A stretch of 64,000 nt of DNA from positions 1 to 64,000 of the forward strand of contig JADGNE010000050.1 in the NCBI GenBank assembly GCA_015234425.1, in the 5' to 3' direction. This DNA comes from Devosia sp. (GTDB lineage Bacteria > Pseudomonadota > Alphaproteobacteria > Rhizobiales > Devosiaceae). The notes below the pieces were generated by a model. It saw only the letters and a list, made by a program, of their open reading frames with translations. It had not been told where the DNA came from and made no database searches. Positions 12,980-61,722 of this stretch are shown here, piece after piece. The position numbers were made by a program, and so were the translations under genes. Numbering within the stretch: the stretch's first letter is position 1; every line of letters starts with the position of its first letter.

Positions 12980-13011
12980 GAGCCGCGCCAAAAACAACAA
13001 GGAGACGTGCG

Positions 13012-15048: not shown

Positions 15049-15059
15049 GCACCGATAAA

Positions 15060-18379: not shown

Positions 18380-18431
18380 TCAATCTCCGCTATCAGAGCG
18401 AAAACCTTAGCATATTCAATGCGGCATCGAC

Positions 18432-18447: not shown

Positions 18448-18513
18448 ATGTGGAAGGAACCAGCTGGTTGAGGAGCCGGCTGCAAAAATGAGCATGCTAC
18501 AGGAGGATAAAGC

Positions 18514-36950: not shown

Positions 36951-37880
36951 ATGCGATCCAATTATCTGGACACGCGCCAGCTCGAAGCCTTTGCTGCCGT
37001 CGTTTCGGTCGGCAGCATCACCGGCGCGGCCAAGGCCATCGGCCTGTCGCAACCGGTTATCACCCGCCAGATCCAGGATCTGGAGGCGCAGATTGGCTTT
37101 GCCCTGCTCCATCGCAGCGGCCCGCGCGTCACCCCCACGCGCCAGGGTCTCGCCTTTTACGAAGACGTCGAAATGTTCCTCACCGGGCTGCGGACGATTT
37201 CGGAAAAGGCTCAGGCCATAAACACCGCTGAAGCCCTGCCCCTGACGGTCGCGTCCATTCCATCCCTCGCCACAGGCATTCTCCCCGCAGCCATCGCTGC
37301 CATAGACGAACGCCTCCGCTCGCGCCAATTGCAGATCCAGGCTATTTCCGCCGAAAAGGTGGTCCAGGCCGTCATCTCGGGCACGTCCGATCTCGGCCTC
37401 GCCAGCTGGCCGGTCGACAATGCCGGGCTCGATGTCCACTGGCAGGCCGAAGTGCCCTGCCACGCGGTCGTCTCCCGCACCCATCGCCTCGCCAGCGCCG
37501 CAGTTCTCACCCCCAATGATCTCCGCGACGAACCGCTGATCATGGCTGCCAATCCCTACCGCCTGCGCATGCTCATCGACAGCGCGCTGGCCGAACAGGG
37601 CGTCACCGCGGGCTCGGTCACCTCCTGCAACGCCACCTATGTTTCTCTGTCCATGGCCAGCCAGGGTCTCGGTATCGCCATCGTCGAGCCGCTGACCGGC
37701 GCCGGCCTCCCCTCGCCCGATCTCGTCGCCGTGCCGCTCTCCTTCCACGTCCCCTTCCGCTGGAGCGTCATCACCGCCATCGGCCGGCCGCTGACGCCTT
37801 CGGTTGCCGCCCTGATCGATGCGATCCGCACCACCGCGTCCGCGAACATCGCCTCCCTCCGCGACACAACTGCGCGCTAG
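36951..37880 (+). CDS. LysR-family transcriptional regulator
   Basis: A 309-residue LTTR with an N-terminal winged HTH (LDTRQLEAFAAVVSVGSITGAAKAIGLSQPVITRQIQDLEAQIGF, read as usual in two parts) and a C-terminal periplasmic-binding-like effector domain from about residue 95. ATG 36951 follows CAGGGTAA, two bases after the esterase stop, so the regulator is the last gene of the operon instead of divergent from it. It presumably responds to the operon's substrate. No T-N11-A site could be assigned with confidence. Confidence 0.9.
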   Translation: MRSNYLDTRQLEAFAAVVSVGSITGAAKAIGLSQPVITRQIQDLEAQIGFALLHRSGPRVTPTRQGLAFYEDVEMFLTGLRTISEKAQAINTAEALPLTVASIPSLATGILPAAIAAIDERLRSRQLQIQAISAEKVVQAVISGTSDLGLASWPVDNAGLDVHWQAEVPCHAVVSRTHRLASAAVLTPNDLRDEPLIMAANPYRLRMLIDSALAEQGVTAGSVTSCNATYVSLSMASQGLGIAIVEPLTGAGLPSPDLVAVPLSFHVPFRWSVITAIGRPLTPSVAALIDAIRTTASANIASLRDTTAR

Positions 37881-37881
37881 A

Positions 37882-38034
37882 TCACGACCGGCTCTGCTGC
37901 GGCGAAAAGCCAAATCGGCGCTTGTAACAGGTCGCGAAATACTGGCTCGACGAGAACCCGCATTCGAACGCGATCTCGATGACGGTGGCGCTGGCCCGTT
38001 CCGTCAGCCAGCGCTTGGCCGCCTCCAGCTTCGG
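37882..38034 (-). pseudogene. C-terminal fragment of an AraC-family regulator
   Basis: Read on the minus strand from 38034 to a TGA at 37882-37884, the frame gives about 50 residues beginning PKLEAAKRWLTERASA, then VIEIAFECGFSSSQYFATCY and a closing KRRFGFSPQQSR. This is the second helix-turn-helix and recognition helix of an AraC/GlxA-type protein. No start, no first HTH and no effector domain are present. The homology stops exactly where SMP-30 homology begins on the other strand, so this is a deletion or rearrangement junction. Confidence 0.75.
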
Positions 38035-38715
38035 CCTCGCTCAAAACGGCCGCTGGCTCGTGGCGCTCGCCAATGATGTTATCCTCTTTTACCGGAAACC
38101 GGCGCGCGCGAGATCATCGCCACCATCGACCACGCCAAGCCCGACATGCGCCTCAACGACGGCAAGTTCGGTCCCGATGGCGCCTTCTGGGTCGGCAGCA
38201 TGGACGGCACACAGAAAGCCCCGCTCGGCGGAAAACTCTATCGCGTCGCCCCGGACGGCGCCGTCACCACCATCGCAACCGACATCGCCATTTCAAACGG
38301 CCTCGCCTGGAACGCCGACGCGACCCGCCTCTACCACTCGGACTCCCGTGGCAGTATGTGGATCGACTGTTGGGATTTCGACGCCGCAACCGGCGCCGCC
38401 AGCAATCGCCGCCGCCTCCGCGACAATGACCTTGCCGCCGGCCGCCCCGATGGCGGCGCCTGCGACTTGGCTGGCCATTATTGGTCCGCCGGCCCCAGCG
38501 AAAGCCGCATCAATTGCTTTGCGCCGGATGGCACGCTCATCGGCACCATTCCCGTGCCGCTCAAAAATCCGACCATGCCCTGTTTCGGCGGGCCGGAGAT
38601 GAAGACCCTTTTCGTCACCAGCCTCGACTCCAAAATCGACGGTTCGGGTCACGATGGCATCCTCGCCATCGACATGGAAATTGCCGGCGTGCCGGTCCAC
38701 ATTTTCGCACGATAA
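38035..38715 (+). pseudogene. SMP-30/gluconolactonase family protein, 5'-truncated and frameshifted
   Basis: Homology begins without a start as LAQNGRWLVALANDVILFY. At about 38092 the frame breaks: TACCGGAAACC would, with one more C, continue as YPETGAREIIATIDH into the intact rest. From 38146 the frame has NDGKFGPDGAFWVGSMDG, ISNGLAWNADATRLYHSDS, GGACDLAGHYW and the family C-terminus CFGGPEMKTLFVTSL. Thus roughly the first fifth is missing and a single-base deletion interrupts the remainder. SMP-30 proteins are sugar lactonases. A terminator-like hairpin follows the stop. Confidence 0.8.
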
Positions 38716-38716: not shown

Positions 38717-38744
38717 GGCCGGGACCTTTTCACAGGTCCCGGCC
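38717..38744. terminator. Terminator-like hairpin between convergent units
   Basis: GGCCGGGACCT and AGGTCCCGGCC form a perfect 11-bp stem with a 6-nt loop (TTTCAC-type), two bases after the SMP-30 stop. No T-run follows on the plus strand. It lies 46 bp from the end of the HAD phosphatase gene on the other strand and may serve both units. Confidence 0.6.
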
Positions 38745-38790: not shown

Positions 38791-39582
38791 TCAGAGATGC
38801 GCCAGCACATAGTCCGGCATGGTCGACGGCGTGCCCTTCACCGGCACCCCCGTCTCCAGCAACACACTGCGCACCCCGGCATTCCGCGCCGCCTTGATGT
38901 CCGTATCTATCTGATCGCCCAGCATAATCGCGTCCCTGGCCTCGGCCCCGACCACCTCCAGCGCCATCCTGATGATCTCTGGTGCCGGCTTCCCAAGGAT
39001 CGTCGGCGTCACCCGGGCCGATGTCGCAATCGAAGCAATAATCGCCCCCGTCCCCGGCTCATAAGACCCGCCCGCAATCGGCCGGATCACATCCGGGTTG
39101 GTGCCGATAAGTTCCGCTCCTGCAAGGATATTTCGCACCGCAGTGGTCATCATCGTATAGTCGAACTTCCGGTCCAGCGCCACGATCACAACCCGCGCCC
39201 CGCTCTCCACCAGCTCAAAGCCAGCAGCCTCGACCCGGGCTTTTAGCGAAGCAGAACCAATGACATAGGCCCCACTGCCCACGGGGTATTTTTTCGTGGC
39301 ATAATCCAGTGCAACTTCGGCAGATGTCAGCACCTGGTCCGGCGCGCAGTCGATCCCCAGCCGCCGGATCTTCTCGGCAAACTCCGCCGGGGACTTTTCG
39401 GCATTATTCGTTATAAAACAATATCTTAGACCCTGTTTCTGCCACAGATTGAAGCGTTCAACCGCCCCCGGAATGGCATCCTCGCCGCGATAAACCACCC
39501 CATCGAGATCGGACAGCACGGCCTTGAACTGGATCTCTTCAACCGAGGCAAGGCGTTGAGAAGTAAGCATAATATTCATCAC
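38791..39582 (-). CDS. HAD-superfamily phosphatase (NagD / p-nitrophenyl phosphatase type)
   Basis: A 263-residue HAD type IIA phosphatase. Motif I is LSDLDGVVYRG, motif II FITNNAEKS, the Lys of motif III in ILGKPAPEII and motif IV MLGDQIDTDIKAA. The C2a cap lies between. Substrates of this group are small phosphomonoesters such as glycerol phosphate, sugar phosphates or nucleotides. It is the last gene of the phosphodiester operon and overlaps the upstream permease gene by four bases, so it would free phosphate from the monoesters made by the two phosphodiesterases. Confidence 0.9.
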   Translation of the reverse strand: MMNIMLTSQRLASVEEIQFKAVLSDLDGVVYRGEDAIPGAVERFNLWQKQGLRYCFITNNAEKSPAEFAEKIRRLGIDCAPDQVLTSAEVALDYATKKYPVGSGAYVIGSASLKARVEAAGFELVESGARVVIVALDRKFDYTMMTTAVRNILAGAELIGTNPDVIRPIAGGSYEPGTGAIIASIATSARVTPTILGKPAPEIIRMALEVVGAEARDAIMLGDQIDTDIKAARNAGVRSVLLETGVPVKGTPSTMPDYVLAHL

Positions 39583-40478
39583 ACCTTGCCCTGAAGATTG
39601 GGATCAAGCTTATCCCGCAGCCAGTCGCCCAGGAGCGAAATGGCCAGAGTTGTAAGGAAGATAACGACCCCGGCCGGAATGCCAATCCACCACGCTGTCG
39701 CCAGATAGTTCCGCCCCTCGCCGAGCAGCAGACCCAGACTCGTTCCCGGAGGTTGCACGCCTAAGCCGAGGAAAGATAACGATGTTTCCAGAAGAATGAT
39801 CTCCGGGAAATTGAGCGTCACCTGCACCATGATGATGCCCATCATGTTCGGCAGCACATGCCGCCAATAGACCTTGGCCGGATGCACTCCCAACGTCCGG
39901 ATGGCGAAGGCATAACCCTGACCATTGGTCGACAGCACCAGCCCGCGAGCAATGCGCGCATAGCCATCCCAGCCAAAAAGCCCAATCAAAACAACGAGCA
40001 GGACAAAATTATTGCCGAAGAAGGCCAGCACCGCCAGCGCCACGATCAGGAACGGGATCGAAGCCTGAAAGTCCACCAGCATCATGATGAAATCATCGAC
40101 CCAGCCCCGGAAATGGGCGGCAACGATCCCCAGCAGCGTCCCGACCGTCGCCCCGATCACCGTCCCCATCAGCGCAATGAGAATGCTGGTCCGCATGGCA
40201 TAGATCACCCGGCTCAGCACATCGCGACCGAGATTGTCGGTGCCTAGGAAATACTCCGGCAGCCCATCCAGGAAGCTCGGCGGCTTCAGCCGCTTGAGCA
40301 GGCTCTGTTCGGCATAGCCGTAAGGCGCGATAAACTCAGCGAAAATCGCCGCGAGTACAATCAGCACCAGCCAGCTGATACAAAGACCGATCACCAGCGG
40401 CGGCCGGGTCTTCCAGATCCGGGTCAACCAGTTTGGACGGCGGCGCAGCTCCGCCGATGCAATATCCATCGTGCTCAT
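39579..40478 (-). CDS. Peptide-type ABC transporter permease (DppC type)
   Basis: A 299-residue inner-membrane permease of the oligopeptide/nickel/opine family. It has the N-terminal OppC domain, LGTDNLGRDVLSRVIYAMRTS and the coupling region GLVLSTNGQGYAFAIRTLGVHPAKVYWRHVLPN, then ETSLSFLGLGVQPPGTSLG. Four-base overlaps on both sides (DppB-type gene before, HAD gene after) show tight translational coupling. Confidence 0.92.
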   Translation of the reverse strand: MSTMDIASAELRRRPNWLTRIWKTRPPLVIGLCISWLVLIVLAAIFAEFIAPYGYAEQSLLKRLKPPSFLDGLPEYFLGTDNLGRDVLSRVIYAMRTSILIALMGTVIGATVGTLLGIVAAHFRGWVDDFIMMLVDFQASIPFLIVALAVLAFFGNNFVLLVVLIGLFGWDGYARIARGLVLSTNGQGYAFAIRTLGVHPAKVYWRHVLPNMMGIIMVQVTLNFPEIILLETSLSFLGLGVQPPGTSLGLLLGEGRNYLATAWWIGIPAGVVIFLTTLAISLLGDWLRDKLDPNLQGKV

Positions 40479-41416
40479 GCGGTCGCCGCCTTCTTGTTCT
40501 GCAGTTCAATTCGCGGGTCGAGCCAGCCATAGGCGAGGTCGACGATCAGATTGATCGCAACCATAGTGAAGGCGATCAGCAGCACCACGCCCTGCACCAC
40601 CGCCAGATCGCGCTGGTTGACGGCATTGACCAGCAACATGCCCACGCCCGGCCAGGCGAAAACCGTCTCGATGGTCACTGCGCCCCCGATCAGCCCACCA
40701 ATGCGCATGCCGACCACGGTCACGACCGGGATCGCCGCGTTGGGAATGGCATGGCGCAGAACACGCCGCTCATGGGGAATGCCCTTGGCCTTGGCCGTCC
40801 GCATGAAGGGCTGATGCAAAACGTCGAGCATGGACGAGCGGGTAAAGCGCGCCACCGTCGCTGCCGCAGCAGTTCCCAGCGTAATCGCCGGCATGAGCAG
40901 GTGCCAGATGCTGCCCGTACCCGAGCTCGGCAGCCACCGAAGCGTCATGGAAAACAGGAGGATGAGCAGGATGCCGAGAAAGAAGTTCGGGATCGAATGA
41001 CCGAGAATGGTGAAGCTCATGGTCGCCTGATCGACCCAGGTGCCGCGCTTGAGCGCAGCGATCACCCCGGCCGGAATGCCAATGAGCAGCGTCAGCAGCA
41101 GCGCGGTGATGCCAAGCTGCAGCGTCACCGGAATACGCTCTGCGATAACTTCCAGCGCCGGTCGACCATCGCGGAAAGAATTGCCGAAATCGCCCTGCAA
41201 CATCGCCCCGATATAGGTGATGTACTGCTCGAACATCGACTTATCGAGGCCCCAGCGCTCCCGGAACGCCGCAATGGCGTCCGGCGAGGCTTCGTCCGAC
41301 ATCATGATCTGCGCCGGATCACCCGACGCGCGCAGTACGACGAACACAAATGTCACCGCCAGCAGCAGCGTCAGCGCCCCGCGAAACAGCTTGGTGACGA
41401 GGAATTGCAAATTCAT
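40475..41416 (-). CDS. Peptide-type ABC transporter permease (DppB type)
   Basis: A 313-residue permease. It opens MNLQFLVTKLFRGALTLLLAVTF and contains DFGNSFRDGRPALEVI, FTRSSMLDVLHQPFMRTAKAKGIPHERRVLRHA and ETVFAWPGVGMLLVNAVNQRD, all typical DppB/OppB marks. ATG 41416 overlaps the phosphodiesterase stop by four bases; a 22-residue extension upstream lies within that gene and is rejected. Confidence 0.92.
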   Translation of the reverse strand: MNLQFLVTKLFRGALTLLLAVTFVFVVLRASGDPAQIMMSDEASPDAIAAFRERWGLDKSMFEQYITYIGAMLQGDFGNSFRDGRPALEVIAERIPVTLQLGITALLLTLLIGIPAGVIAALKRGTWVDQATMSFTILGHSIPNFFLGILLILLFSMTLRWLPSSGTGSIWHLLMPAITLGTAAAATVARFTRSSMLDVLHQPFMRTAKAKGIPHERRVLRHAIPNAAIPVVTVVGMRIGGLIGGAVTIETVFAWPGVGMLLVNAVNQRDLAVVQGVVLLIAFTMVAINLIVDLAYGWLDPRIELQNKKAATA

Positions 41417-42849
41417 GCGCTCCAGGCCCCCGTCCCTGCCGTCCAGCCGCAATCGACGATGGTCTTGCCCTCGATCACCCACTGACGGAGATATTGCTCA
41501 TGCCCCCTATGGGTGGCGCTGAGCACGCGGGTCTCGACATCAGGCGCCGTGCCAAAACCCGGGGTATCCCCGACAAGCGCCTCAACCAGCGGACGACCAG
41601 AGGTGCCGTCGAGCGGCAGGCCCATGGTGGTGAGGATGGTCGGCGCAATGTCAGGCAGCCAGCACGGCGTGTCCGAGGCAAAATTCTGGCGATAGGCCGG
41701 GCCCTGCGCGGCCAGAACCGTCGAAAGTTCGCCGCGATTGAGCCCGCCATGCATGCCACCACCCGGTTTAATCCAGGCCGCAAAGATGCAGGCATCCTCA
41801 TGCGGCCCATAGCTCTCGGACGAATTGGTGCCCCGCAGCGTAAAGCCGACATCAGCACTGCGCGAATGGCCGTTACGAACCGCTGACCACGGCAACGCGC
41901 CTTCGATGGCTGTGCCATCTTCCGCCGTCGCAAAAACCAGCCCGCAGAAGTCCTGCTCGACCAGCCAGGCCACCACGCGGGCCTTTTCGGCATCGGATTT
42001 ATCGTTGAGATAGATGCCGCTGAAGGAGCCGATCGACGCCTCGCCAAACTCGGCGGGGATGATGTCTGTCGTCTCGAGCTGGCGCTGGCCGGTGATCTGC
42101 CCGTGATCGGACATCACGATGATGTTTTCCGGCCCGTTCCCTGCGCGCCACCAGGCCAGAAACCGCCCGAAATTGTCGTCGCAATTCTTCTGCGCCGCCT
42201 CGGTTTCCGCCGCAGTGACGCCGAAGAGGTGCGAGCTCATATCCGGATCATTCATCCAGAACACGCAGAGATCCGGATTGTAGTCGGGATAGATGACCTC
42301 GATCAGCACATTGGTGGAGTAAGTCATGCGGTTGGAGTTGGGTGCAGTGGCCTCGGGAATATCGCCGAGACACGCGATCACCTTGTCATGCAGCTCGGCA
42401 CTCGACACCGGCAGGCCGTGCATCGAAAACACCGGCTGGCCGAGGTCATGCGCACTCGAATTCATCATGCGCGATGCGCCCTTGGTGGCGGTGCTGAGCA
42501 CAGCCATGGTGCGTCCGGCCTCCGCCATGCGCTGGCCGAGCGTCTTGGAATCGAGCAGCTGGCCGGCCTCAGCCGCCGCTTCGAGATGCTCCCACTCGGC
42601 TGTCTTGAACAGCTCGCCTGGGCGCACCGGATGGATGAACTGATTGGCCACGACCCCGTGGTCAGCCGGCGGACAGCCGGTCATTGTGGAGGTCACGGCA
42701 ACGCGCGTTTCGCTCGGGAAGATCGAGCGAGAATTGAGGAAATTGCTGCCCTCGGCCATGAAGGCGGCGAGGTTGGGCATCAGGTCAGGCGTGGCGCGAT
42801 CGCGGCGCAGGCCGTCAAATGTAATGATGAGCGTGGAACCGCGGCTCAT
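41413..42849 (-). CDS. Alkaline-phosphatase-fold phosphodiesterase (type I phosphodiesterase/nucleotide pyrophosphatase)
   Basis: A 478-residue hydrolase of the AP superfamily. The first metal Asp is in LIITFDGLRRD, the nucleophile region is IFPSETRVAVTSTMTGCPPADHG, the second set of ligands is FWMNDPDMSSHLFG and the third VMSDHGQITG. No signal peptide is present, so it acts on imported substrate in the cytoplasm. GGAGG precedes ATG 42849, which overlaps the GDPD gene end by four bases. Within the operon it offers a second phosphodiester-cleaving specificity beside the GDPD enzyme. Confidence 0.87.
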   Translation of the reverse strand: MSRGSTLIITFDGLRRDRATPDLMPNLAAFMAEGSNFLNSRSIFPSETRVAVTSTMTGCPPADHGVVANQFIHPVRPGELFKTAEWEHLEAAAEAGQLLDSKTLGQRMAEAGRTMAVLSTATKGASRMMNSSAHDLGQPVFSMHGLPVSSAELHDKVIACLGDIPEATAPNSNRMTYSTNVLIEVIYPDYNPDLCVFWMNDPDMSSHLFGVTAAETEAAQKNCDDNFGRFLAWWRAGNGPENIIVMSDHGQITGQRQLETTDIIPAEFGEASIGSFSGIYLNDKSDAEKARVVAWLVEQDFCGLVFATAEDGTAIEGALPWSAVRNGHSRSADVGFTLRGTNSSESYGPHEDACIFAAWIKPGGGMHGGLNRGELSTVLAAQGPAYRQNFASDTPCWLPDIAPTILTTMGLPLDGTSGRPLVEALVGDTPGFGTAPDVETRVLSATHRGHEQYLRQWVIEGKTIVDCGWTAGTGAWSA

Positions 42850-43568
42850 TGGAGCGCCTCCAGAATAGATTTGGTCAGGGAAACATCGTTGATCAGAACG
42901 CCGTCGATGCCAGCGCCGGCGAGCGCCGTGAGGCTCGCGGCATCGGTGTCGCCGACCGTGCGGCCGGTGGTGCCGTGGCCGGTGGTCACCCACACTTCGG
43001 CGCCCGCAGCCTTCAGCGCAGCGACCCGCTCGTGGGTCACATCGCTCTCCCAAAGGCGGATAAGGCTGGCACCACCGCGGTGAAATTCCAGAGCGACATC
43101 AGGGCTCGGAATAAAGCCGAGGACCGTAACGTCGCCCTTGGCGGCGAAGAACTCCGTCGCTTCCATCGTGTGGCAGCCCGCAATCACGAGGTGCCGCAAA
43201 GCCTCTGGCACAGCGCGCTCGATATCAGCCCAGAGACGCTTAAGGCCTTCGGGGCTCTCATCCTTGAGATCAAGCAGCACAGGCTTGCCTGCGGCGGCAT
43301 AGGCCAGCACATCGGCAAAGGTGCTGACGCGGTCACTGTTATCGGTGCTGAGGCTGGAGAGTTCCTTAAAACTCAGCGCATCGGCGCGATCCGTCCGGCC
43401 GAACAGGCGCTGCAGCGTCGGATCGTGGGAGCAGATGCCCACGCCGTCGACTGAATAGCGAATATCCGCTTCGATCGCGAAGGCGCCCTTTTCGAAAGCG
43501 GCAGTCCAGGCGGCCGGCGTATTTTCTGCATGTGCGGCGCTGTCGCCGCGATGCGCGATGATCTTCAT
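42846..43568 (-). CDS. Glycerophosphodiester phosphodiesterase (GDPD, UgpQ-like)
   Basis: A 240-residue cytoplasmic GDPD. Catalytic and metal residues are visible: IAHRGDSAAHAENTPAA (His-Arg-Gly and Glu), IEADIRYSVDG (Glu-x-Asp) and CSHDPTLQR (catalytic His), then LLDLKDES and the late VLINDVS. It hydrolyses glycerophosphodiesters to glycerol 3-phosphate (or a related monoester) and an alcohol. It is encoded in the middle of a peptide-type importer operon, 33 bp after the DppF-type ATPase gene. Confidence 0.92.
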   Translation of the reverse strand: MKIIAHRGDSAAHAENTPAAWTAAFEKGAFAIEADIRYSVDGVGICSHDPTLQRLFGRTDRADALSFKELSSLSTDNSDRVSTFADVLAYAAAGKPVLLDLKDESPEGLKRLWADIERAVPEALRHLVIAGCHTMEATEFFAAKGDVTVLGFIPSPDVALEFHRGGASLIRLWESDVTHERVAALKAAGAEVWVTTGHGTTGRTVGDTDAASLTALAGAGIDGVLINDVSLTKSILEALQ

Positions 43569-43601
43569 TTTCGGTCCGATCCGTTCGGAAACTGATGGTG
43601 C

Positions 43602-44426
43602 TCAGAGCGCCGCAAAATTCTGCAAGTCACGTTGCCGGCGCTGGCGCGGCGTATCGGCCGGGATAGCTGCCAGCAGACGGAGGGAATAGTCATGCTTGGG
43701 GGCTTCAAAAAGCGCGGTGGACTCCCCGATTTCCAGCAATTGCCCCCGATGCATCACCCCAACCCGGTGGCTGATATGGCGCACCACCGACAGGTCGTGA
43801 GAGATGAACATCATCGAGAGGTTGAGCCGTTCGCGCAGCTCGAGCAAGAGATTGATGATCTGAGCCTGCACCGACACGTCGAGCGCACTCACCGCCTCAT
43901 CGCACACCACCAGCCGCGGCTTGAGCACGAGCGCCCGGGCGATCACAGCACGCTGCAATTGCCCGCCAGACAATTGATGCGGCAGACGATGGCTCATCGG
44001 CCCCAGGCCAACCATGTCGAGCATGTCCTGCGCCCGATCATCGGCCTCGGACGGCGCGAGTTTCTCATGCGCCGTCAGCGCCTCGCGCACTTGCGCATGA
44101 ACACTCCAGCGCGGGTCAACCACCGAAGCTGGGCTCTGGAACACCACCTGAACCCAGCGCCGCTGCGCCCGCCATTCCTTGGTGCCCACCGGCGCGTAGT
44201 TCTGCCCCCAGAACGACACCTGCCCGCTCGTCGGGCTTTCGATGCCGGCGATCATCCGCCCGAGGGTGGATTTACCGCTGCCGCTCTCGCCGACAATGCC
44301 CAGGGTCTCCCCCTCGGCGATATCGAGCGTCACCGTATCGACCGCCCGGAACACTTCCGGCTTGCTGAAGAGTTTTCGGCCAACCGGATAGCTCTGGACG
44401 AGGTTGAGCGCCTTGACGCCGCTCAT
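43602..44426 (-). CDS. Peptide-type ABC transporter ATP-binding protein (DppF type)
   Basis: A 274-residue ATPase. Walker A is GESGSGKST, the signature LSGGQLQR, Walker B LVVCDEAVSALD (DEA where DEP is usual) and the switch His FISHDLSV. The C-terminal oligopeptide-type extension is short. ATG 44426 overlaps the DppD-type stop by four bases. Confidence 0.91.
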   Translation of the reverse strand: MSGVKALNLVQSYPVGRKLFSKPEVFRAVDTVTLDIAEGETLGIVGESGSGKSTLGRMIAGIESPTSGQVSFWGQNYAPVGTKEWRAQRRWVQVVFQSPASVVDPRWSVHAQVREALTAHEKLAPSEADDRAQDMLDMVGLGPMSHRLPHQLSGGQLQRAVIARALVLKPRLVVCDEAVSALDVSVQAQIINLLLELRERLNLSMMFISHDLSVVRHISHRVGVMHRGQLLEIGESTALFEAPKHDYSLRLLAAIPADTPRQRRQRDLQNFAAL

Positions 44427-45460
44427 TGGGAGACCCCCGCGCCGATGTGGTGGCAGGCCACCATCGTGCCCCGCCCTGCAACCATTCCTGGTGTGCTCGT
44501 GCAGCTTGCACTCGCCAGCGCACAGCGCGGCGAGAAGGCGCAACCCTGCGGACGCGCCGATGGCGACGGCACGGTTCCTGCGATCGCCTGCAGCGGCGTC
44601 CCCGGCACCCGGCCGAAGCCGATCCGGCTGTTCATCAGCGCGCGCGTATAGGGATGGGACGGATGGTCAAACAGCGCATCGACGCTGCCTGTTTCGACCA
44701 CCTTGCCCGAATACATTACCGCCACATGGTCGGCGATTTCGGCCACGACACCGAGGTCATGCGTCACAAACACCACCGCCAGGTCGAGCTCGGTCTGGAG
44801 ATCGCGGATCAGCCGCAGGATCTGCGCCTGGATGGTCACATCCAGCGCCGTGGTCGGCTCGTCGGCAATGAGCAGTTTGGGCTTGCAGGCCAGCGCCATG
44901 GCGATCATCACGCGCTGGCACATGCCGCCCGACAACTGGTGCGGATAGTAGGTCTTGTGGCGCGGTACATTGGGAATGCCGACCTGGTCGAGCAGTTCCT
45001 CCATCCGCGCCTCGGCCTTACGGCCGCGCAGATCGGTATGCTGCAGGATCGCTTCGACAATCTGCTGCCCAACCCGACGGATCGGGTTGAGCGCCGTCAT
45101 CGGGTTCTGGAAGATCATCGTCACGTCGCGACCGCGCAGGCGGTTCAGCGCTCGTTCCGGCGCGCCGATGGTCTCTTCACCGAAGAGACGGACCGAGCCG
45201 CTGGAGACGAGGCCGTCATCGAGAAGCCCGAGGGCCGACATACAGGTAAGGCTCTTGCCGCACCCGCTTTCGCCCACGAGGCAAAGCGTCTCGCCGGGGC
45301 GAACTGCGAGGCTGACACCATCCACCAGATTGGCCGAGCCGGCGCGCACCACGAGATTGCGGATATCGAGAACCGGTTCAGCCAGCTTGCGCCCAGCCTC
45401 GGCGAGGGAAAGAGCAGGCGCTTTGGCCCCCACTCCTCCAAGATGTGCCAGCCCCATCAT
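44423..45460 (-). CDS. Peptide-type ABC transporter ATP-binding protein (DppD type)
   Basis: A 345-residue ATPase. Walker A is GESGCGKS, the signature LSGGMCQR, Walker [13 protein letters not shown], and the switch His FVTHDLGV. The C-terminal OppD-type extension has the Cys cluster ([16 protein letters not shown]) that often ligates a [4Fe-4S] cluster or zinc. The start is one of GTG 45463, ATG 45460 or ATG 45457, all overlapping the binding-protein stop; I give ATG 45460. Confidence 0.91.
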
Positions 45461-47043
45461 CACTTGGCTTCGAAGCTGAGGTTATAGGGACGCAGGTCCA
45501 TGTAGTAGAACGTGTAGGGGTTCCACTGCACGTCCTTGGCCACGCCATAGGTCTCGAGCGGCTGGTAGAGCACGGTGCCGGGGGCATCGGTTTTCCAGAT
45601 ATCGATCATTTCCCAGACCGCTTCCTGGCGCGTTGCTAGGTCAACCGTGCTTTCCAGCACTGCGCCGAGCTCATTGAAGCGGGCGACACCCTCAGTGCCG
45701 ATCCAGGTCTTGTTGGTCTTCTGCGGACCGGAATGCGGGCCCCAGGTGTTCCAGACACCACCGACCGGGTCGGGGTAGCGGGTGGAATTCGACCAGGTGC
45801 GAACCTGAAGCGCACCGACATCAAGACCCGTCAGGCTTTCAACAACGTTGAGCTCGACATTGATGCCCACTTCCTTCCACATCTCGACGATCACCTGCGC
45901 GGCCGGCAGGGCGTTGAGATAATAGTTCGGCTGGGTCGTATATTTGATCAGCTCGCCATTATAACCGGCTTCGTTGAGCAGCTCGCGAGCGCGCTCCGGA
46001 TTGTACTCCAGACCGACGAAGTCCGGGTTATACATGTCGCCATATTCGGGATACTGGTGGCCGTTCGGCACCACGGCCTGGCCGCCCCAGAGCGCTTCGT
46101 TCAGCAGGTCGCGATCAATCGCCAGGTTCAGCGCCTGACGAATGCGCGCATCATCCATCACCGGATCGGTGACGCCATAGACCAGCACATGGGAGTTCGC
46201 CAGAACCACCGAGCGGGTTTCGATATCGTCGTAGGAATTGATCTGGTCGATCTGATCCGGAGACACATTGGTGATGATGTCGAACTCGCCCGAAACCAGG
46301 CCCGCAACGCGGGTGGACGGCTCCGGCACTTCGCGGAAGGTCACGGTTTCAGCGGTCGGCAGGCCACCGAAATAGGCATCATTGGCCTTGAGGACGATCT
46401 TCTCGTCGGCGCGATATTCTTCAAGCATGTAGGGGCCGGTGCCGACCGGGAACATCGGCAGGCCGCCATCCTGCTCGGCCTTGGCCAGCCAGTCTTCCTT
46501 GTTCACCACCCACGATGCCCAGGACGCGAGGCGCTGCTCAAGCAGTGGATCGGGCGCCTTGGTGATGAAGTGGATGGTCGTCGGATCGACGATCTTCACG
46601 TCCTTGAGCACGGAGAAAAACGCCGGGCCTTCGGACAGAAGCGCATTCTCGCCGCTCAGGCGCTCAGGCGAGAAAGTGAACGCAATGTCTTCAGCGGTCA
46701 GCGGCGCGCCATTGTGGAAGGTGACGCCCTCGCGCAGCTTGATCTCAAGCGTGAGGTCATCAATGCGCGTCCACGAGGTCGCAAGGCCGGGCACCAGCTC
46801 GGAGCCGCCACCACCTTCTGCCGACAGGAAATCACGACGGATCAGCGTGTCGAAGATCGAGTAATTGACGCGCGTGCCGACATTGGACAGCTCCTTGCCC
46901 GGCTCCAGCGTCGGCGGCAGGTCCGCAACGCCGACGACGAGGTCCGGCCGCTCCTGGGCGAGCACGGGAAGCGACACCGAGCTCAGCGCGGCGGCGCTGA
47001 CAAGGCCCAGAACGAGGCGGCGGGAGAGATTGATTGCAGGCAT
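45460..47043 (-). CDS. Family 5 ABC transporter substrate-binding protein (DppA/OppA fold)
   Basis: A 527-residue periplasmic receptor, first gene of the eight-gene operon. The leader has a twin-arginine-like NLSRRLVLGLVSAAALSS and ends near PVLAQE. The SBP_bac_5 signature is present: TLEPGKELSNVGTRVNYSIFDTLIRRD, LATSWTRIDDLTLEIKLREGVTFHNG and LTAEDIAFTF. The phosphodiester hydrolases in the operon, together with no peptidase, suggest a non-peptide ligand such as a glycerophosphodiester. It is divergent from the LacI-family gene across a 224-bp gap. Confidence 0.9.
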   Translation of the reverse strand: MPAINLSRRLVLGLVSAAALSSVSLPVLAQERPDLVVGVADLPPTLEPGKELSNVGTRVNYSIFDTLIRRDFLSAEGGGGSELVPGLATSWTRIDDLTLEIKLREGVTFHNGAPLTAEDIAFTFSPERLSGENALLSEGPAFFSVLKDVKIVDPTTIHFITKAPDPLLEQRLASWASWVVNKEDWLAKAEQDGGLPMFPVGTGPYMLEEYRADEKIVLKANDAYFGGLPTAETVTFREVPEPSTRVAGLVSGEFDIITNVSPDQIDQINSYDDIETRSVVLANSHVLVYGVTDPVMDDARIRQALNLAIDRDLLNEALWGGQAVVPNGHQYPEYGDMYNPDFVGLEYNPERARELLNEAGYNGELIKYTTQPNYYLNALPAAQVIVEMWKEVGINVELNVVESLTGLDVGALQVRTWSNSTRYPDPVGGVWNTWGPHSGPQKTNKTWIGTEGVARFNELGAVLESTVDLATRQEAVWEMIDIWKTDAPGTVLYQPLETYGVAKDVQWNPYTFYYMDLRPYNLSFEAK

Positions 47044-47219
47044 TGAAAAGGCCCCAGTTGGTTAGCTGGGAGCGACCTACAAACCGTCAATGACGGTGCG
47101 GTGACACCGACATGACAATTCCATGAACTTGGTTTCGACCCGTCCCCTCTCTGCTGCGACGAGTTGTCCCCGCCCCGATTTCTCAGCCTCTCGTCTGCTT
47201 GATTCATTTTAGGACGCCT

Positions 47220-47267: not shown

Positions 47268-48338
47268 TTGCCGCCACGCAAGCGACTGACACAGAAGGAC
47301 ATTGCCCGTTTGGCTGGTGTGAGCCAGGCGACCGTCTCCCTCGTGCTCAATGGCTCGCCTGAGAATGCAAACCGCATTCCGGACGACACGCGTGAACGCG
47401 TCATGAAGGTCATTCGCGACACCGGCTATGTCGCCGACCCCATTGCCCGGCGCATGGTCAATGGCCAGAACCGGATCCTCGGCGTCTTCACCTATGAGCC
47501 CGCCTTCCCGTCCGATCAGGCCGACTTTTTCCTGCCCTTCCTGCTCGGTATCGAAGAGGCCGCTCAGAAGCTCGGCTACGATTTGCTGCTGCTCACCGGC
47601 GCGGGAGCCGGCGGGAAGCGCAAGATTTTCGGCAATGATGTGCGCCTGCGCCTCGCCGACGGCTGCATTATCCTCGGCCGCCAATTCGACCCCAAGGAAC
47701 TCGCCCGCCTCGTCGCCGGCGATTTCCCCTTTGTCGCCGTTGGTCGCCGCGACGATGCCGGCGGCCCTGTCCCCTATGTCGGCGGCGACTACGCCACGGC
47801 CACCGCTGCCCTCGTCAGCCGCTCCCGCGATCTCGGCCACACGCGACTTGGCTTTGTCGGCTTCAAGGACGGCGCGGAATCCTCGTCCGACCGCTGGACT
47901 GGTTTTGAAGCCAGCCTCGAGGGCGTCGGTCTCGCTTATACCCACCACGCCGTCGGTGCTGATCCCGATATGCTCCTTGATGGCCTCCTCGCTGAAAACG
48001 TGACCTGCGTCTTCTGCACCGAACTCGTCGACGCCAACGGCGTCGAGGCCGCCGCCACCGCCCGCGGCCTCGCAGTGCCGGCCGATCTCTCCATCGTCGT
48101 CCTCGGCAATCACATCCGCGCCGAAGAGCCGGGCCGCAAATTCACCTCCTTTGCCATCCCCCGCGAAGCCATGGGCTATGGCGCCACCGAAATGCTGGTG
48201 CGGCGCGTCGAACAGGCCGCCCCCCTCGAGCAGATCCTGCTCACCTGTGACCTTCGTGAAGGCGACACACTGGGCCCCTGCCCGGACACTCTGTCTTCGC
48301 GCTCCTCTCAAGCAAAACCGAACGGAACAAATGACTAA
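47268..48338 (+). CDS. LacI-family transcriptional regulator
   Basis: A 356-residue repressor. The HTH (LTQKDIARLAGVSQATVSLVLNG) and hinge region open the protein and a sugar-binding-like effector domain follows (ILGVFTYEPAF onward; DGCIILGR; CVFCTELVDANGVEAA). The start is TTG 47268; no ATG lies near the HTH. It is first in a plus-strand unit with the FAD oxidoreductase and sugar importer, overlapping the oxidoreductase start by eight bases. The paired operators upstream are its likely targets. Confidence 0.91.
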   Translation: MPPRKRLTQKDIARLAGVSQATVSLVLNGSPENANRIPDDTRERVMKVIRDTGYVADPIARRMVNGQNRILGVFTYEPAFPSDQADFFLPFLLGIEEAAQKLGYDLLLLTGAGAGGKRKIFGNDVRLRLADGCIILGRQFDPKELARLVAGDFPFVAVGRRDDAGGPVPYVGGDYATATAALVSRSRDLGHTRLGFVGFKDGAESSSDRWTGFEASLEGVGLAYTHHAVGADPDMLLDGLLAENVTCVFCTELVDANGVEAAATARGLAVPADLSIVVLGNHIRAEEPGRKFTSFAIPREAMGYGATEMLVRRVEQAAPLEQILLTCDLREGDTLGPCPDTLSSRSSQAKPNGTND

Positions 48339-49944
48339 AGAGCTTCACGCAGATATTCTCATTGTCGGTGGCGGACTTGGCGGTGTTGCCGCAGCGCTGG
48401 GCGCCCTGCGCGCCGGCCGTTCCGTGATCATGACCGAGGAATTCGACTGGATCGGCGGCCAGCTGACCAGCCAGGCCGTGCCACCCGATGAGCACTCCTG
48501 GGTCGAGCAGTTCGGCATCACCCGCTCTTATCGCCAGCTGCGCACCGGTATCCGCCAGTATTATCGCGATCACTACCCGCTGACCGAAGCAAGCCGCGCC
48601 TGGGGCGATCTCAATCCCGGCGCCGGCTTCGTCAGCCGCCTCTGCGCCGAGCCGCGCGTCGGCCTCGCCGTTCTGGAATCCATGCTCGCCCCCTATATCG
48701 GCGGCGGCAAGCTCACCATCCTCAAGCCTTATCTGCCGATCTCGGCGGATGTCGTTGGCGATGAAGTGAAATCCGTCACCCTGCGCCATCGCGACAGCGG
48801 CCGCACGATCACCTGCTCGGCCCCATATTTCGTCGACGCCACCGAGCTGGGCGACCTGCTGCCGATGACCGGCACCGAATATGCCACCGGTTTTGAGTCC
48901 CAGTCCGACACCGGCGAGCCCAGCGCCCCTGCCGAAGCCCAGCCCGACAACGTCCAGGCGATTTCGGTCTGCTTTGCCATGGATCATGTCGACGGCAACC
49001 ATGTCATCGACAAGCCGGACAATTATGACTACTGGCGCAGCTACGAACCCCATTTCTGGGGCGGCCCGCTGCTCGGCTTCACCGCGCCCCATCCGCGCAC
49101 GCTCGAAAGCACCACCCGCACCTTTACGCCCAATCCGGATGACAATCCGCTCTTGGTCGATGCCGATCAGCGCCGCAATCCGGGCGATGGCAATCTCTGG
49201 ACCTTCCGCCGTATCGCAGCACGTCGCAACTTCGTGCCCGGCGCCTACAATTCCGACATCTGCCTCGTGAACTGGCCGATGATCGACTATCTCGATGGCA
49301 ACATCATCGATGCTTCCGAAGAGGACAAGGCCAAGCACCTCAAGGCTGCTGCCGATCTCTCCTACTCGGTCTTCTACTGGCTGCAGACCGAAGCGCCCCG
49401 CACCGATGGCGGCCAGGGCTTCCCCGGCCTGCGCCTGCGTGGCGATGTCACCGGCACCGAGCATGGCCTCGCCATGGCGCCCTATATCCGCGAAAGCCGC
49501 CGCATCCTGCCGGTCACCCGCATTCTCGAGCAGGATGTTTCCATGCTCGTGCACGGCAACAACCTGTCCAAATCCTACCGCGACAGCGTTGGCATCGGCA
49601 TGTACCGCATCGACCTGCATCCTTCGACCGGCGGCGACAATTATGTCGACGTGGAATCCGCGCCCTTCGAAATCCCGCTGGGCTCGCTCCTGCCGCGCCG
49701 CGTCAAGAACCTGCTTGCCGGCGGCAAGAACATGGGCACCACCCACATCACCAATGGCTGCTACCGCCTGCACCCCGTCGAATGGAACGTGGGTGAAGTT
49801 GCCGGCATGCTGGCCGCACACTGCCTCAACAATGGCCTGACCCCGCACCAGGTCCAGGCCGACGACGCCAAACTCCAGGACTTCCAGGCACAGCTCTACA
49901 ACGCGGGTATCGAGATCCGCTGGCCGGACGTCCGGGGCTACTGA
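48331..49944 (+). CDS. FAD-dependent oxidoreductase (FAD_oxidored family)
   Basis: A 537-residue flavoprotein. The N-terminal Rossmann motif ILIVGGGLGGVAAALGA is followed by FDWIGGQLTSQ and, near the middle, the FVDATELGDLLP motif of the PF12831 family. The C-terminal part has NLLAGGKNMGTTHITNGCYRLHP (in pieces of the same region), closing the FAD site. No signal is present. Members in sugar-uptake operons are thought to oxidise sugars or polyols, but the substrate here is unknown. It overlaps the LacI gene end and precedes the binding-protein gene by 26 bp. Confidence 0.87.
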   Translation: MTKELHADILIVGGGLGGVAAALGALRAGRSVIMTEEFDWIGGQLTSQAVPPDEHSWVEQFGITRSYRQLRTGIRQYYRDHYPLTEASRAWGDLNPGAGFVSRLCAEPRVGLAVLESMLAPYIGGGKLTILKPYLPISADVVGDEVKSVTLRHRDSGRTITCSAPYFVDATELGDLLPMTGTEYATGFESQSDTGEPSAPAEAQPDNVQAISVCFAMDHVDGNHVIDKPDNYDYWRSYEPHFWGGPLLGFTAPHPRTLESTTRTFTPNPDDNPLLVDADQRRNPGDGNLWTFRRIAARRNFVPGAYNSDICLVNWPMIDYLDGNIIDASEEDKAKHLKAAADLSYSVFYWLQTEAPRTDGGQGFPGLRLRGDVTGTEHGLAMAPYIRESRRILPVTRILEQDVSMLVHGNNLSKSYRDSVGIGMYRIDLHPSTGGDNYVDVESAPFEIPLGSLLPRRVKNLLAGGKNMGTTHITNGCYRLHPVEWNVGEVAGMLAAHCLNNGLTPHQVQADDAKLQDFQAQLYNAGIEIRWPDVRGY

Positions 49945-49970
49945 TTACGCTTAACCACAGGGAGAGAAAA

Positions 49971-51242
49971 ATGACCAATATGTCCAACCTCAAGGCCAGC
50001 GCTGCGCTGGCCGGCATCCTGCTTCCGCTGGCCTTCGGCGGCGTCGCCTGGGCCCAGGACGCAGTCAACCTGCGTATGACCACCTGGAGCGCCAACGAAG
50101 CGCACATGGCGGTGTTCAACGGCATTGCCGAGGAATTCAAGAAGACCCACCCGAACGTGACGGTGACTTTCGAACCCCTGCCGTTCGATAACTACACCAC
50201 CACGCTCACCACCCAGATCGCCGGCGGCAACGCTCCGGACCTGGCCTGGATCTTCGAAACCAGCGCCCTCGACTTCGTCTCCTCCGGCGCCCTCGTGCCG
50301 CTGACCGAGCGTTTCAACGCCGTCGAAGGCTACAACCTCGCCGACGTCACCGAGAGCGCAACCGCCCTCTGGCGCCGCGATGGCGAGCTCTTCGCCTATC
50401 CGTTCTCGACCTCGCCCTTCGCGATGTTCGCCAACACCGATCTGATCACCGCGGCCGGCGCAAAAACCCCGTCCGAGCTGATCGCCGCTGGCGAATGGAC
50501 TTGGGACAACGCCCTGGCCTCGGCCAAGGCCGTTGCTGACGCCGGCAAGGACGGCATCATCATCCGCGACTTCAACTACCAGAACTGGCAGAACCTGACC
50601 GCCTTCTTCCGCGGCTGGGGTGCCGATTCCTGGAGTACCGACGGCAAGGCCTGCGGCTTCAACACGCCGGAAATGGTCGAAGCCATGACCGTCTTCCACA
50701 ATGCTGTCTTCAAGGACGGTTCGCTCCCCGGCCCGGGCGAGAACGTGGACTTCTTCACTGGCGACGCCGCCATGACCGTCACCCAGATCTCGCGCGCTTC
50801 GCTCCTGCCCAAGGAAGACCCGTTCAACTGGGAACTCGTTCCGCTTCCGGCTGGTCCTGTCGGCACCTATTCGGTCGTCGGTCAGGCTGGTGTTGGCGCC
50901 CTCGCCAGCGGCAAGAATGTCGACACCGCCGTCGAATTCCTCGCCTTCTTCACCAATGCCGAAAACAGCGCCAAGCTGGCCAGCTTCTTCCCGCCGGCCC
51001 GCGCTTCGCTCCTCAACACCGACACGCTCGCAGCAACCAATCCGCTGCTGTCGGCTGAGCAGATCGAAAATGTCGTCATCAACGGCATCTCGACCGGCCA
51101 TGTTGTCGCCGGCCACACCAACTACGCCCAGATCCAGCAGACGGTCCGCGCTGGCCTCGACGCCCTCTGGGTTGCCGATGCCGACGTCGCTGCCGTGCTG
51201 GACAATGTCTGCACCAGCGTCAGCCCGCTGCTGATGCGCTAA
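49971..51242 (+). CDS. Family 1 ABC transporter substrate-binding protein (sugar type)
   Basis: A 423-residue periplasmic receptor with a Sec signal (leader ending LAFGGVAWAQ). The SBP_bac_1 pattern is present: LRMTTWSANEAHMAVFNGIAEEF, ITTQIAGGNAPDLAWIF-like LTTQIAGGNAPDL, FAYPFSTSPFAMFANTDLI and the late FFTGDAAMT. CAGGGAGAG precedes ATG 49971. A palindromic intergenic repeat follows, which may stabilise this part of the mRNA. Ligand probably a carbohydrate or polyol; identity not readable. Confidence 0.91.
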   Translation: MTNMSNLKASAALAGILLPLAFGGVAWAQDAVNLRMTTWSANEAHMAVFNGIAEEFKKTHPNVTVTFEPLPFDNYTTTLTTQIAGGNAPDLAWIFETSALDFVSSGALVPLTERFNAVEGYNLADVTESATALWRRDGELFAYPFSTSPFAMFANTDLITAAGAKTPSELIAAGEWTWDNALASAKAVADAGKDGIIIRDFNYQNWQNLTAFFRGWGADSWSTDGKACGFNTPEMVEAMTVFHNAVFKDGSLPGPGENVDFFTGDAAMTVTQISRASLLPKEDPFNWELVPLPAGPVGTYSVVGQAGVGALASGKNVDTAVEFLAFFTNAENSAKLASFFPPARASLLNTDTLAATNPLLSAEQIENVVINGISTGHVVAGHTNYAQIQQTVRAGLDALWVADADVAAVLDNVCTSVSPLLMR

Positions 51243-51266
51243 GCCAACCGGAGCTTCGGCTCTCTC

Positions 51267-51411
51267 TTCCCTCCCCCTCGTGGGGAGGGAAGCTGAACAG
51301 GGCCCGGCGCGCCAGGTCCGTCGTGAAGCAGGGTGGGGGTAATGCCCCCGCAAACTCGGTGAGCGTGGCTCGCCCCCACCCTAGATCCCTCCCCACAGGG
51401 CGGAGGGAGAC
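51267..51411. repeat. G/C-rich palindromic intergenic repeat, copy 1
   Basis: The copy opens with a hairpin TTCCCTCCCC/GGGGAGGGAA (51267-51291), continues through a long inverted pair AGGGTGGGGG...CCCCCACCCT (about 51329-51384) and ends CCTCCCCACAGGGCGGAGGG. It fills the gap between the binding-protein and first permease genes. Similar blocks occur at 56966, 58249, 61723 and 63371. Confidence 0.7.
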
Positions 51412-51423
51412 GCAGGAACCCCA

Positions 51424-53173: not shown

Positions 53174-53176
53174 CCC

Positions 53177-54222
<1,046 letters not shown>

Positions 54223-54223
<1 letters not shown>

Positions 54224-60426: not shown

Positions 60427-60501
60427 TCGCTTCTGACTTTCAAAATTCTTGGTGCATTCGTCTCGCCGTCACAGGCGGGAGCCGGAAAACTCAGGAGAAA
60501 A

Positions 60502-61671: not shown

Positions 61672-61722
61672 CGTGTGCACACAACTTTCAGTTCAGGCGT
61701 CAATCACTGCGTTCTCAGTCGA

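What the first reader, a model, noticed from the sequence alone, without database searches (positions are those of the whole stretch)
38791..47043. Eight-gene operon coupling a peptide-type ABC importer to three phosphoesterases
The order is binding protein, DppD, DppF, GDPD, alkaline-phosphatase-fold phosphodiesterase, DppB, DppC, HAD phosphatase, with nearly all junctions overlapping by 4 bp. The enzymes are cytoplasmic and form a logical route from imported phosphodiester to monoester to free phosphate. Peptide-family importers dedicated to organophosphodiesters are, as far as I know, poorly described. The two hydrolases placed between the transporter halves argue that cargo and enzymes evolved together.
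Basis: partly seen in the sequence, partly recalled or inferred. Interest (0 to 1): 0.7.

Follow-up and report, generated by a model that had tools for sequence, protein, structure and literature searches.

The report
Phosphate-starvation importer for organic phosphodiesters
A soil bacterium carries a self-contained gene set, probably switched on when phosphate runs short, that appears to import organic phosphate diesters and break them down inside the cell; it is a new variant of the importer that crown-gall bacteria use for the tumour compound agrocinopine.

Summary
The eight-gene operon is real, at the stated coordinates. Its binding protein is not a peptide binder: its closest solved relatives by sequence are AccA, the agrocinopine (sugar phosphodiester) binding proteins of Agrobacterium (402 bits; best dipeptide binder 129). 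So peptide-family importers for phosphodiesters are known (the acc operon), and a review states that acc responds to phosphate limitation. An opine-catabolic plasmid already has a GDPD gene between the transporter halves.

What is new here: (1) the order binding protein–DppD–DppF–GDPD–NPP-fold phosphodiesterase–DppB–DppC is kept in Devosia, Aurantimonadaceae and other Alphaproteobacteria. (2) The residues that hold the phosphate in AccA are kept, but several around the pyranose are replaced (W423R, E510Y), so the ligand is probably not an agrocinopine. (3) A PHO-box-like site lies 61–90 bp upstream of the binding-protein gene in the window and in 17 of 18 other loci; similar sites precede this genome's pstS and ugpB, and accR in Ti/OC plasmids.

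Best reading: a PhoB-controlled phosphorus-scavenging importer with its own cytoplasmic phosphoesterases, working like Ugp–UgpQ on the AccA scaffold. Ligand unknown. New variant of a known kind.

The parts
47101..47118 (-). PHO-box-like site TTGTCAT-GTCG-GTGTCAC, starting 75 bp upstream of the binding-protein start
   Evidence: empirical p 0.0006 for the window itself, where it was discovered; a site in the same stretch and strand at p<0.05 in 17 of 18 other loci
47090..47107 (-). overlapping third 11-bp half-site (CCGTCAT) in register with the PHO-box-like site
   Evidence: 2 mismatches to the pattern
45460..47043 (-). AccA-type substrate-binding protein (SBP_bac_5), with signal peptide by inspection
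44423..45463 (-). ABC ATPase, DppD type, with oligo_HPY
43602..44426 (-). ABC ATPase, DppF type, short C-terminus without oligo_HPY match
42846..43568 (-). GDPD-family phosphodiesterase, no signal peptide seen
   Evidence: PF03009 65.5 bits, cut-off 23.6; H6, R7, E33, D35, H48, K102 invariant in the 14 rows of A6
41413..42849 (-). NPP/alkaline-phosphatase-superfamily phosphodiesterase (Phosphodiest), no signal peptide seen
   Evidence: D12, T48, D203, H207, D248, H249, H367 invariant in the 36 rows of A5
40475..41416 (-). permease, DppB type
39579..40478 (-). permease, DppC type
38791..39582 (-). HAD-IIA phosphatase; last gene, not found after DppC in 10 of 17 complete loci
38717..38744 (-). 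terminator-like inverted repeat (10-bp stem, 8-base loop, then TTTA) after the HAD gene
   Evidence: read from the sequence; not scored by a tool

Best explanation
The operon is a phosphorus-scavenging unit. When phosphate is short, phosphorylated PhoB binds the PHO-box-like repeats upstream of the binding-protein gene (inferred). The AccA-type binding protein holds a phosphodiester, using residues that in AccA contact the phosphate (N54, Y375, Y376, S419) or anchor the sugar (N284) (residues shown, binding inferred). The DppBCDF-type ABC transporter brings the intact diester into the cytoplasm (inferred). There the GDPD and the NPP-type phosphodiesterase, two unrelated diesterases whose active-site residues are conserved, open different diester bonds or different ligands (inferred). 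The HAD-IIA phosphatase removes the phosphate from the monoester (inferred). The ligand is probably not an agrocinopine, because several residues around the pyranose differ. It is probably not only glycerophosphocholine or -ethanolamine either, because the genome has a separate UgpB with a GDPD gene 3 kb away. It works like Ugp-UgpQ but is built on the AccA scaffold.
For: Binding protein: AccA is the best PDB match, 402.1 bits, E 3.6e-119; the best dipeptide-binding protein scores 129.2. The five residues N54, N284, Y375, Y376, S419 are kept 5 of 5 in 58 and 4 of 5 in 5 of 63 distinct AccA-like proteins. The 29 other SBP_bac_5 paralogues of this genome examined (of 38 matches, the window's included) have at most 2. 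Gene set: of 80 named-genome loci encoding the phosphodiesterase (80 kept of 93), 17 have the full seven-gene order and 26 more have an AccA-type binding protein in the stretch held, while 13 of 385 sampled genomes of the class, the own one included, have such a protein at E<=1e-100. Regulation: PHO-box-like site in 17 of 18 other type-I loci against 1 of 13 type-II DppD starts. Similar sites precede this genome's pstS and ugpB, and accR in 5 of 5 Ti/OC-plasmid copies tested, an operon that a review calls activated by phosphate limitation (PMC4086400). PhoB is present above its cut-off.
Against: No ligand, expression or growth data. The PHO box is a consensus match; the loci share ancestry, so combined p-values overstate independence; the score was chosen after seeing the window's site (the window is not counted). 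One of 18 loci (L061) fails, and 3 of 11 type-II and 3 of 3 type-III binding-protein starts fail (longest-ORF starts). The sister operon of pAtK84b (two near-identical copies) and the D. neptuniae plasmid operon show no such site within 300 bp. A LacI gene faces the operon across 224 bp with operator-like repeats, so sugar control in this strain is possible. Why two diesterases are needed is unexplained, and HAD was not found after DppC in 10 of 17 complete loci. 37 of 80 phosphodiesterase loci have no AccA-type protein in the stretch held.
Confidence: 0.72

Rival explanations
1. It is an agrocinopine (acc) catabolism operon: it imports opine-like pyranose-2-phosphate diesters as a carbon and phosphorus source or signal.
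For: AccA is the closest solved protein. Same ABC type and a GDPD-family enzyme in the pTiC58 acc operon. The nearest operon type lies on an opine-catabolic plasmid next to accR/accA genes. PHO-box-like control is shared with acc: sites before accR in 5 of 5 copies, phosphate control of acc in print.
Against: M372, W423, T430, E434 and E510 of AccA are Q, R, G, T and Y here. No DeoR-type accR and no IMPase-type accG among the eight genes or as the divergent neighbour. The window GDPD aligns with the C58 AccF frame over only 62 aa (that frame may be incomplete).
Confidence: 0.12
2. It is an ordinary peptide or nickel-chelate importer whose operon happens to contain phosphoesterases.
For: SBP_bac_5 and DppB/C/D/F family membership.
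Against: The binding protein reaches no peptide or nickel equivalog cut-off in NCBIfam. AccA scores three times the best dipeptide binder. The enzyme genes stay between the transporter genes across several families.
Confidence: 0.06
3. The cargo is a phosphonate or phosphonate monoester, the NPP-type enzyme acting like phosphonoacetate hydrolase or a phosphonate monoester hydrolase.
For: Weak matches to phosphonoacetate hydrolase (TIGR02335, 26 bits against a cut-off of 407.55; 1ei6, E 0.00036). Pho control would also fit.
Against: No C-P lyase gene among the eight; the HAD's match to phosphonatase is 19.7 bits against a cut-off of 220. GDPD and HAD point to esters.
Confidence: 0.07
4. A LacI-controlled sugar-diester catabolic operon serving carbon rather than phosphorus nutrition.
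For: LacI gene at 47268-48338, divergent, with a FAD oxidoreductase and a sugar-type ABC importer behind it; operator-like repeats near the LacI start (by inspection).
Against: No LacI next to the same operon in the closest other species, G069. There only the promoter-proximal part, PHO-box-like site included, is conserved. No outside gene but general ABC ATPases recurs in three or more of 19 loci.
Confidence: 0.05

Closest known systems
acc operon of pTiC58 (AccR, AccA, AccBCDE, AccF, AccG), agrocinopine import and catabolism
   Same: Binding protein of the same family (41% identity), DppDFBC-type transporter, GDPD-family diesterase and a phosphomonoesterase in one operon; a PHO-box-like site at the head of the operon, before accR; activation by phosphate limitation stated in PMC4086400 (passage)
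   Different: Here the diesterases sit between the transporter halves, an NPP-type diesterase is added, HAD replaces IMPase, residues around the pyranose differ, there is no DeoR repressor in the unit, and in a genome of the same species the operon is on a 4.2-Mb contig, presumably the chromosome
Operon Arad_14142-14137 of the opine-catabolic plasmid pAtK84b, and the copy on pAtCFBP7129c
   Same: Order binding protein, ATPase, ATPase, GDPD, permease, permease; about 62% identical binding protein with the same R423/Y510; sister group in the tree
   Different: No NPP-type diesterase; a histidine phosphatase gene stands beside it on the other strand instead of a HAD gene; no PHO-box-like site within 300 bp; traR and an annotated sugar-type regulator nearby
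Ugp-UgpQ (glycerol-3-phosphate / glycerophosphodiester importer with cytoplasmic GDPD, Pho regulon)
   Same: Probable function: Pho-controlled import of diesters and cytoplasmic hydrolysis (function recalled; the PHO boxes of the E. coli ugp operon are stated in PMC4415409, passage)
   Different: UgpB is another binding-protein family; this genome has UgpB elsewhere (535 bits) with a GDPD 3 kb away
XanT-XanP xanthosan utilisation (PMC12807533, passages seen)
   Same: Import of a sugar phosphodiester and hydrolysis in the cell
   Different: Putative TonB-dependent transporter and a 2H phosphoesterase; other families

Membership tests
acc (agrocinopine catabolism) operon | AccA-type binding protein | tested here: met
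acc (agrocinopine catabolism) operon | Residues around the pyranose-2-phosphate (M372, W423, T430, E434, E510) | tested here: not met
   Q, R, G, T, Y in the window; W178 and N284 kept, Y145 is F
acc (agrocinopine catabolism) operon | AccG of the IMPase family and AccR of the DeoR family in the unit | tested here: not met
   HAD instead, the divergent regulator is LacI; the rest of the genome was not searched for them
acc (agrocinopine catabolism) operon | PHO-box-like site at the head of the operon | tested here: met
   window; accR of pTiC58, pAtK84b (two) and pAtCFBP7129c (two)
acc (agrocinopine catabolism) operon | Import and use of agrocinopine | not testable with these tools
   needs binding and growth assays
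Pho regulon member | PHO box upstream (11-bp direct repeats) and a PhoB in the genome | tested here: met
   positive controls pstS, ugpB, accR
Pho regulon member | PhoB-dependent induction at low phosphate | not testable with these tools
   needs expression data
Ugp importer | UgpB-type (PRK10974) binding protein | tested here: not met
   the window protein is SBP_bac_5 and not among the UgpB matches; UgpB lies at G000:C23
GDPD | PF03009 above cut-off, conserved HRG, E-x-D and HD residues (motif recalled) | tested here: met
   the Pfam match covers only profile positions 1-114 of 244, and D100 stands where E is usual (recalled)
NPP / type I phosphodiesterase | PF01663 above cut-off and seven metal/nucleophile residues (motif recalled) | tested here: met
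   D12, T48, D203, H207, D248, H249, H367 invariant in 36 of 36 rows
HAD-IIA phosphatase | TIGR01460 above cut-off | tested here: met
   144.5 bits, cut-off 100.15
Dipeptide/nickel importer | Binding protein reaching a DppA, OppA or NikA equivalog cut-off | tested here: not met
   best 141.4 bits against a cut-off of 600

The most novel reading that the evidence does not exclude
The window operon belongs to a widespread Pho-controlled family of AccA-type importers that take up large or doubly charged phosphodiesters, such as teichoic-acid or phosphoglycan fragments, with Arg423 reading a second anionic group and the two diesterases working in turn. The Ti-plasmid agrocinopine importer, which agrocin 84 hijacks and which shares the PHO-box-like control, would then be a plasmid-borne offshoot of this older phosphorus-scavenging family.
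Probability: 0.2. Interest if true: 0.65.

Novelty: new variant of a known kind. Interest (0 to 1): 0.42.

Why it matters
If right, soil and marine Alphaproteobacteria have, besides Ugp, another Pho-regulon route for organic phosphodiesters that looks like dipeptide transport by family. It would place the agrocinopine/agrocin 84 importer among relatives that serve phosphorus nutrition outside crown gall, and it gives a concrete set of residues (R423, Y510) and enzymes with which to look for the ligand.

Tried and rejected
A plain peptide importer was rejected because AccA outscores the peptide- and nickel-binding proteins listed. Control by the neighbouring LacI was rejected as the general rule because LacI does not travel with the operon. 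A literal agrocinopine operon was judged unlikely on the residues around the pyranose.

Corrected on checking: I had taken the starts of accA (C58 and two in pAtK84b) as controls without a PHO box. They are internal starts; the operon head is accR, and all five accR starts tested have a PHO-box-like site 82-83 bp upstream. The Fisher test (17/18 against 1/19) included those three internal starts and should not be quoted as a clean contrast. I also found only then that the paper reports phosphate control of acc, citing Kim et al. 2008, which is not held. Because of this I lowered interest from 0.47 to 0.42 and the interest of the novel case from 0.68 to 0.65, and raised the agrocinopine rival from 0.10 to 0.12.

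The exact PHO-box pattern occurs once in the own genome; a naive estimate of mine expects about one, so this alone means nothing. In the window scan loose matches are no more than chance (2 found, 2.77 expected). Only position and conservation carry weight. TIGR00975 found no PstS in the own genome; pstS was recognised by reading the pst-phoU-phoB region, not by a family search. For ugpB the farthest upstream ATG was taken as start. A first control alignment of paralogues used wrong frames for some rows and was redone with an HMM, in which distant paralogues have gaps at some sites. The ORF-based order table lost genes under shadow ORFs and was replaced by tblastn.

Literature: among the rows listed by searches (several capped at 8 to 20 of many papers) no title or abstract start describes this seven-gene unit or an NPP-type diesterase with an AccA-type importer; the library lacks most subscription papers. 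Kim and Farrand 1997, Oger and Farrand, and Kim et al. 2008 are known to me only through reference lists and recall.
Full report
The observation. The eight genes are present on the minus strand from 47043 to 38791 in the stated order, with no stops inside. Pfam confirms the families; in NCBIfam only HAD-IIA reaches its cut-off among the rows listed. Six of seven junctions overlap by 4 bp if the longest starts are used. Two of these six could be 1-bp overlaps with the next ATG, and DppF/GDPD is a 33-bp gap. A terminator-like hairpin follows the HAD gene at 38744-38717 (read). The operon is also in a second genome of the species, on a 4.2-Mb contig (G054).

What the binding protein is. Among solved structures the best matches are AccA proteins, the agrocinopine-binding proteins of Agrobacterium: 402.1 bits, E 3.6e-119. 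The best dipeptide-binding protein has 129.2 bits. PMC4526662 (abstract, introduction and two of three parts of the results seen) describes import of agrocinopine A and agrocin 84 through AccA and AccBCDE, cleavage by AccF, and recognition of a pyranose-2-phosphate. A peptide-family importer for phosphodiesters, with its own diesterase and phosphatase, is therefore a known kind. In plasmid records 258 hold a relative at E<=1e-60, 11 of them at 60-80% identity; those eleven are Agrobacterium and Rhizobium rhizogenes records. In pAtK84b the order is binding protein, ATPase, ATPase, GDPD, permease, permease, so a diesterase between the transporter halves has a precedent. PMC6546132 (passages and section 22 seen) describes the ACC/ARC regions of such plasmids; that this operon belongs to them is my inference from its place beside accR and accA genes.

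Ligand-site residues. Positions were numbered so that the residues of C58 AccA agree with those named in the paper. All tested agree except 504, printed Glu in the paper's text but Trp in the sequence. N54, Y375, Y376 and S419, which contact the phosphate in AccA, and N284, which with N54, S419 and E510 anchors the sugar, are kept in the window. They are 5 of 5 in 62 and 4 of 5 in 5 of 67 AccA-like rows, or 58 and 5 of 63 distinct sequences. As a control, 29 other SBP_bac_5 proteins of the same genome (30 loci held out of 38 matches, one being the window's) have 0 to 2 of the five. Other positions around the ligand differ: M372 to Q, W423 to R, T430 to G, E434 to T, E510 to Y, Y145 to F (Tyr in the other type-I rows); W178 is kept. 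R423 occurs in 34 distinct sequences, 33 with Y510 and one with F510, and Y510 never without R423; they include the type-I rows, the pAtK84b operon protein and the Bosea/Chelatococcus group. In a 64-row tree the 17 type-I proteins form one group (99/94), with the pAtK84b type as sister (99/99); the place of the Ti AccA is weakly supported (91/52).

The gene set elsewhere. In the family, 17 of 136 genomes have the phosphodiesterase at E<=1e-30. Of these 17, the own genome and six more show all eight genes in order. One more has all eight with the binding protein cut by a contig end, three are incomplete at contig ends or split over two contigs, one has its genes broken into pieces, and five have another arrangement beside an AccA-like binding protein. 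A scan of named genomes kept 80 loci of 93 relatives. Of these 80, 17 have the full seven-gene order, 7 of them with HAD after DppC (the frame-broken L066 among them). Another 26 have an AccA-type binding protein (over 300 bits, at least 4 of 5 residues) in the stretch held. The remaining 37 have none, one of these being a contig-end copy with the rest of the order. The 17 include Devosia, Aurantimonas, Aureimonas, Jiella, Mangrovicella, Acuticoccus, Oceaniovalibus, a Rhizobium MAG, a Rhodobacteraceae and a Rhodospirillaceae bacterium. Several Devosia loci are the same contigs. By comparison, 13 of 385 sampled genomes of the class, the own one included, have an AccA-type protein at E<=1e-100 (at most three candidates scored per genome). 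Within 7 kb, no outside gene but general ABC ATPases recurs in three or more of 19 loci. A Halomonas plasmid carries a copy with a broken binding-protein gene. The monoesterase is exchangeable: IMPase in pTiC58, a histidine phosphatase beside the pAtK84b operon, HAD here; Pseudoroseomonas has a metallophosphoesterase after its binding-protein gene.

The enzymes. In the NPP-type enzyme D12, T48, D203, H207, D248, H249 and H367 are invariant in 36 rows; they match the metal and nucleophile positions of nucleotide pyrophosphatases (recalled; the alignment covers part). In the GDPD the residues H6, R7, E33, D35, H48 and K102 are invariant in 14 rows, but the Pfam match covers only the first half of the profile. 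It resembles the pAtK84b GDPD (36% over 227 aa) more than the C58 AccF frame (34% over 62 aa, where that frame may be incomplete). The HAD reaches the HAD-IIA cut-off.

Regulation. Upstream of the binding-protein start lies TTGTCAT-GTCG-GTGTCAC with a third half-site CCGTCAT in register. A PHO box is two 11-nt direct repeats with CTGTCAT as the most conserved E. coli motif (PMC4415409, passages seen). With a score on that consensus, set after the window's site was seen, 17 of 18 other type-I loci have a site at p<0.05 in the stretch -115 to -45, starting 61 to 90 bp upstream. The miss is L061; duplicates L035 and L040, the contig-end copy L052 and the differently arranged L063 were left out. 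Controls: 1 of 13 type-II DppD starts; 0 of 6 AccA-type starts on Ti/OC plasmids and the D. neptuniae plasmid, but three of those six are internal to operons headed by accR. Binding-protein starts of other arrangements: 8 of 11 in the Bosea/Chelatococcus group, 0 of 3 in Ensifer, Mesorhizobium and Phyllobacterium. Tested afterwards, all 5 accR starts (pTiC58, two in pAtK84b, two in pAtCFBP7129c) have a site at -82 or -83 (p 0.0015 to 0.0030; two pairs are near-copies), while the D. neptuniae operon and the pAtK84b-type operon have none within 300 bp. PMC4086400 (passage seen) states that acc is activated by phosphate limitation, citing Kim et al. 2008, which is not held. In the own genome similar sites precede pstS (p 0.006 over 240 positions) and ugpB (p 0.011 over 200), and PhoB is present above its cut-off. 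The loci are related, so p-values overstate independence. The divergent LacI does not accompany the operon in G069, where only the promoter-proximal part with the PHO-box-like site is conserved.

Interpretation. The best-supported reading is Pho-controlled import of a phosphodiester and its stepwise hydrolysis in the cytoplasm. Pho control is shared with acc and so is a family trait rather than a novelty. The genome has UgpB and a GDPD 3 kb from it, so the operon probably serves other diesters. The ligand is unknown and two diesterases remain unexplained. The finding is a new variant of the acc kind with a likely Ugp-like role. The most novel reading, a family for large or doubly charged diesters from which the Ti-plasmid importer branched, is not excluded but has no direct support.

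Noticed in passing
window 47268-54906: Divergent LacI gene followed by a FAD-dependent oxidoreductase (PF12831), a sugar-type ABC importer and a 227-aa protein without Pfam match; operator-like repeats GCTAATGCGTATTAGC / GATACGTATTAGC lie near the LacI start.
   Followed up: partly
window 58330-61680: Two different ADP-ribosylglycohydrolase-family genes (698 and 392 aa) lie side by side next to ABC transporter genes.
   Followed up: no
window 37880-38715: The SMP-30/gluconolactonase gene downstream of the operon matches only profile positions 86-245 of 246 in its frame; it looks truncated or broken.
   Followed up: no
L025 ~7997-8014, L026 and L031 upstream of accR: PHO-box-like sites 82-83 bp before accR in 5 of 5 Ti/OC-plasmid copies, CTGTCAT-ATAG-CTGTCAT in two of them, in line with reported phosphate control of acc.
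   Followed up: yes
L027 (Halomonas sp. PA16-9 plasmid) 11885-19357: A gammaproteobacterial plasmid carries the same operon at up to 87% identity with a binding-protein gene broken into pieces, which suggests transfer and decay.
   Followed up: partly
L051 (Rhodobacteraceae bacterium Alg231_30): Its binding protein branches inside the Devosia group in the tree, which suggests horizontal transfer of the operon.
   Followed up: partly
L032, L087, L093 (Phyllobacterium, Mesorhizobium, Ensifer): Distant phosphodiesterase relatives follow an AccA-like importer with, in L032, a DAO-type oxidoreductase and a creatinase/M24-family protein; relatives of one or both stand in L087 and L093.
   Followed up: partly
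L082, L086, L113 (Elioraea, Acetobacteraceae): Three AccA-type binding-protein genes in a row before one DppDFBC set and a phosphodiesterase.
   Followed up: no
L025 14261-15069 (pTiC58 record NZ_AF010180): The accF gene is not in the gene table given for this record, and its longest open frame does not start with the usual GDPD N-terminus.
   Followed up: no
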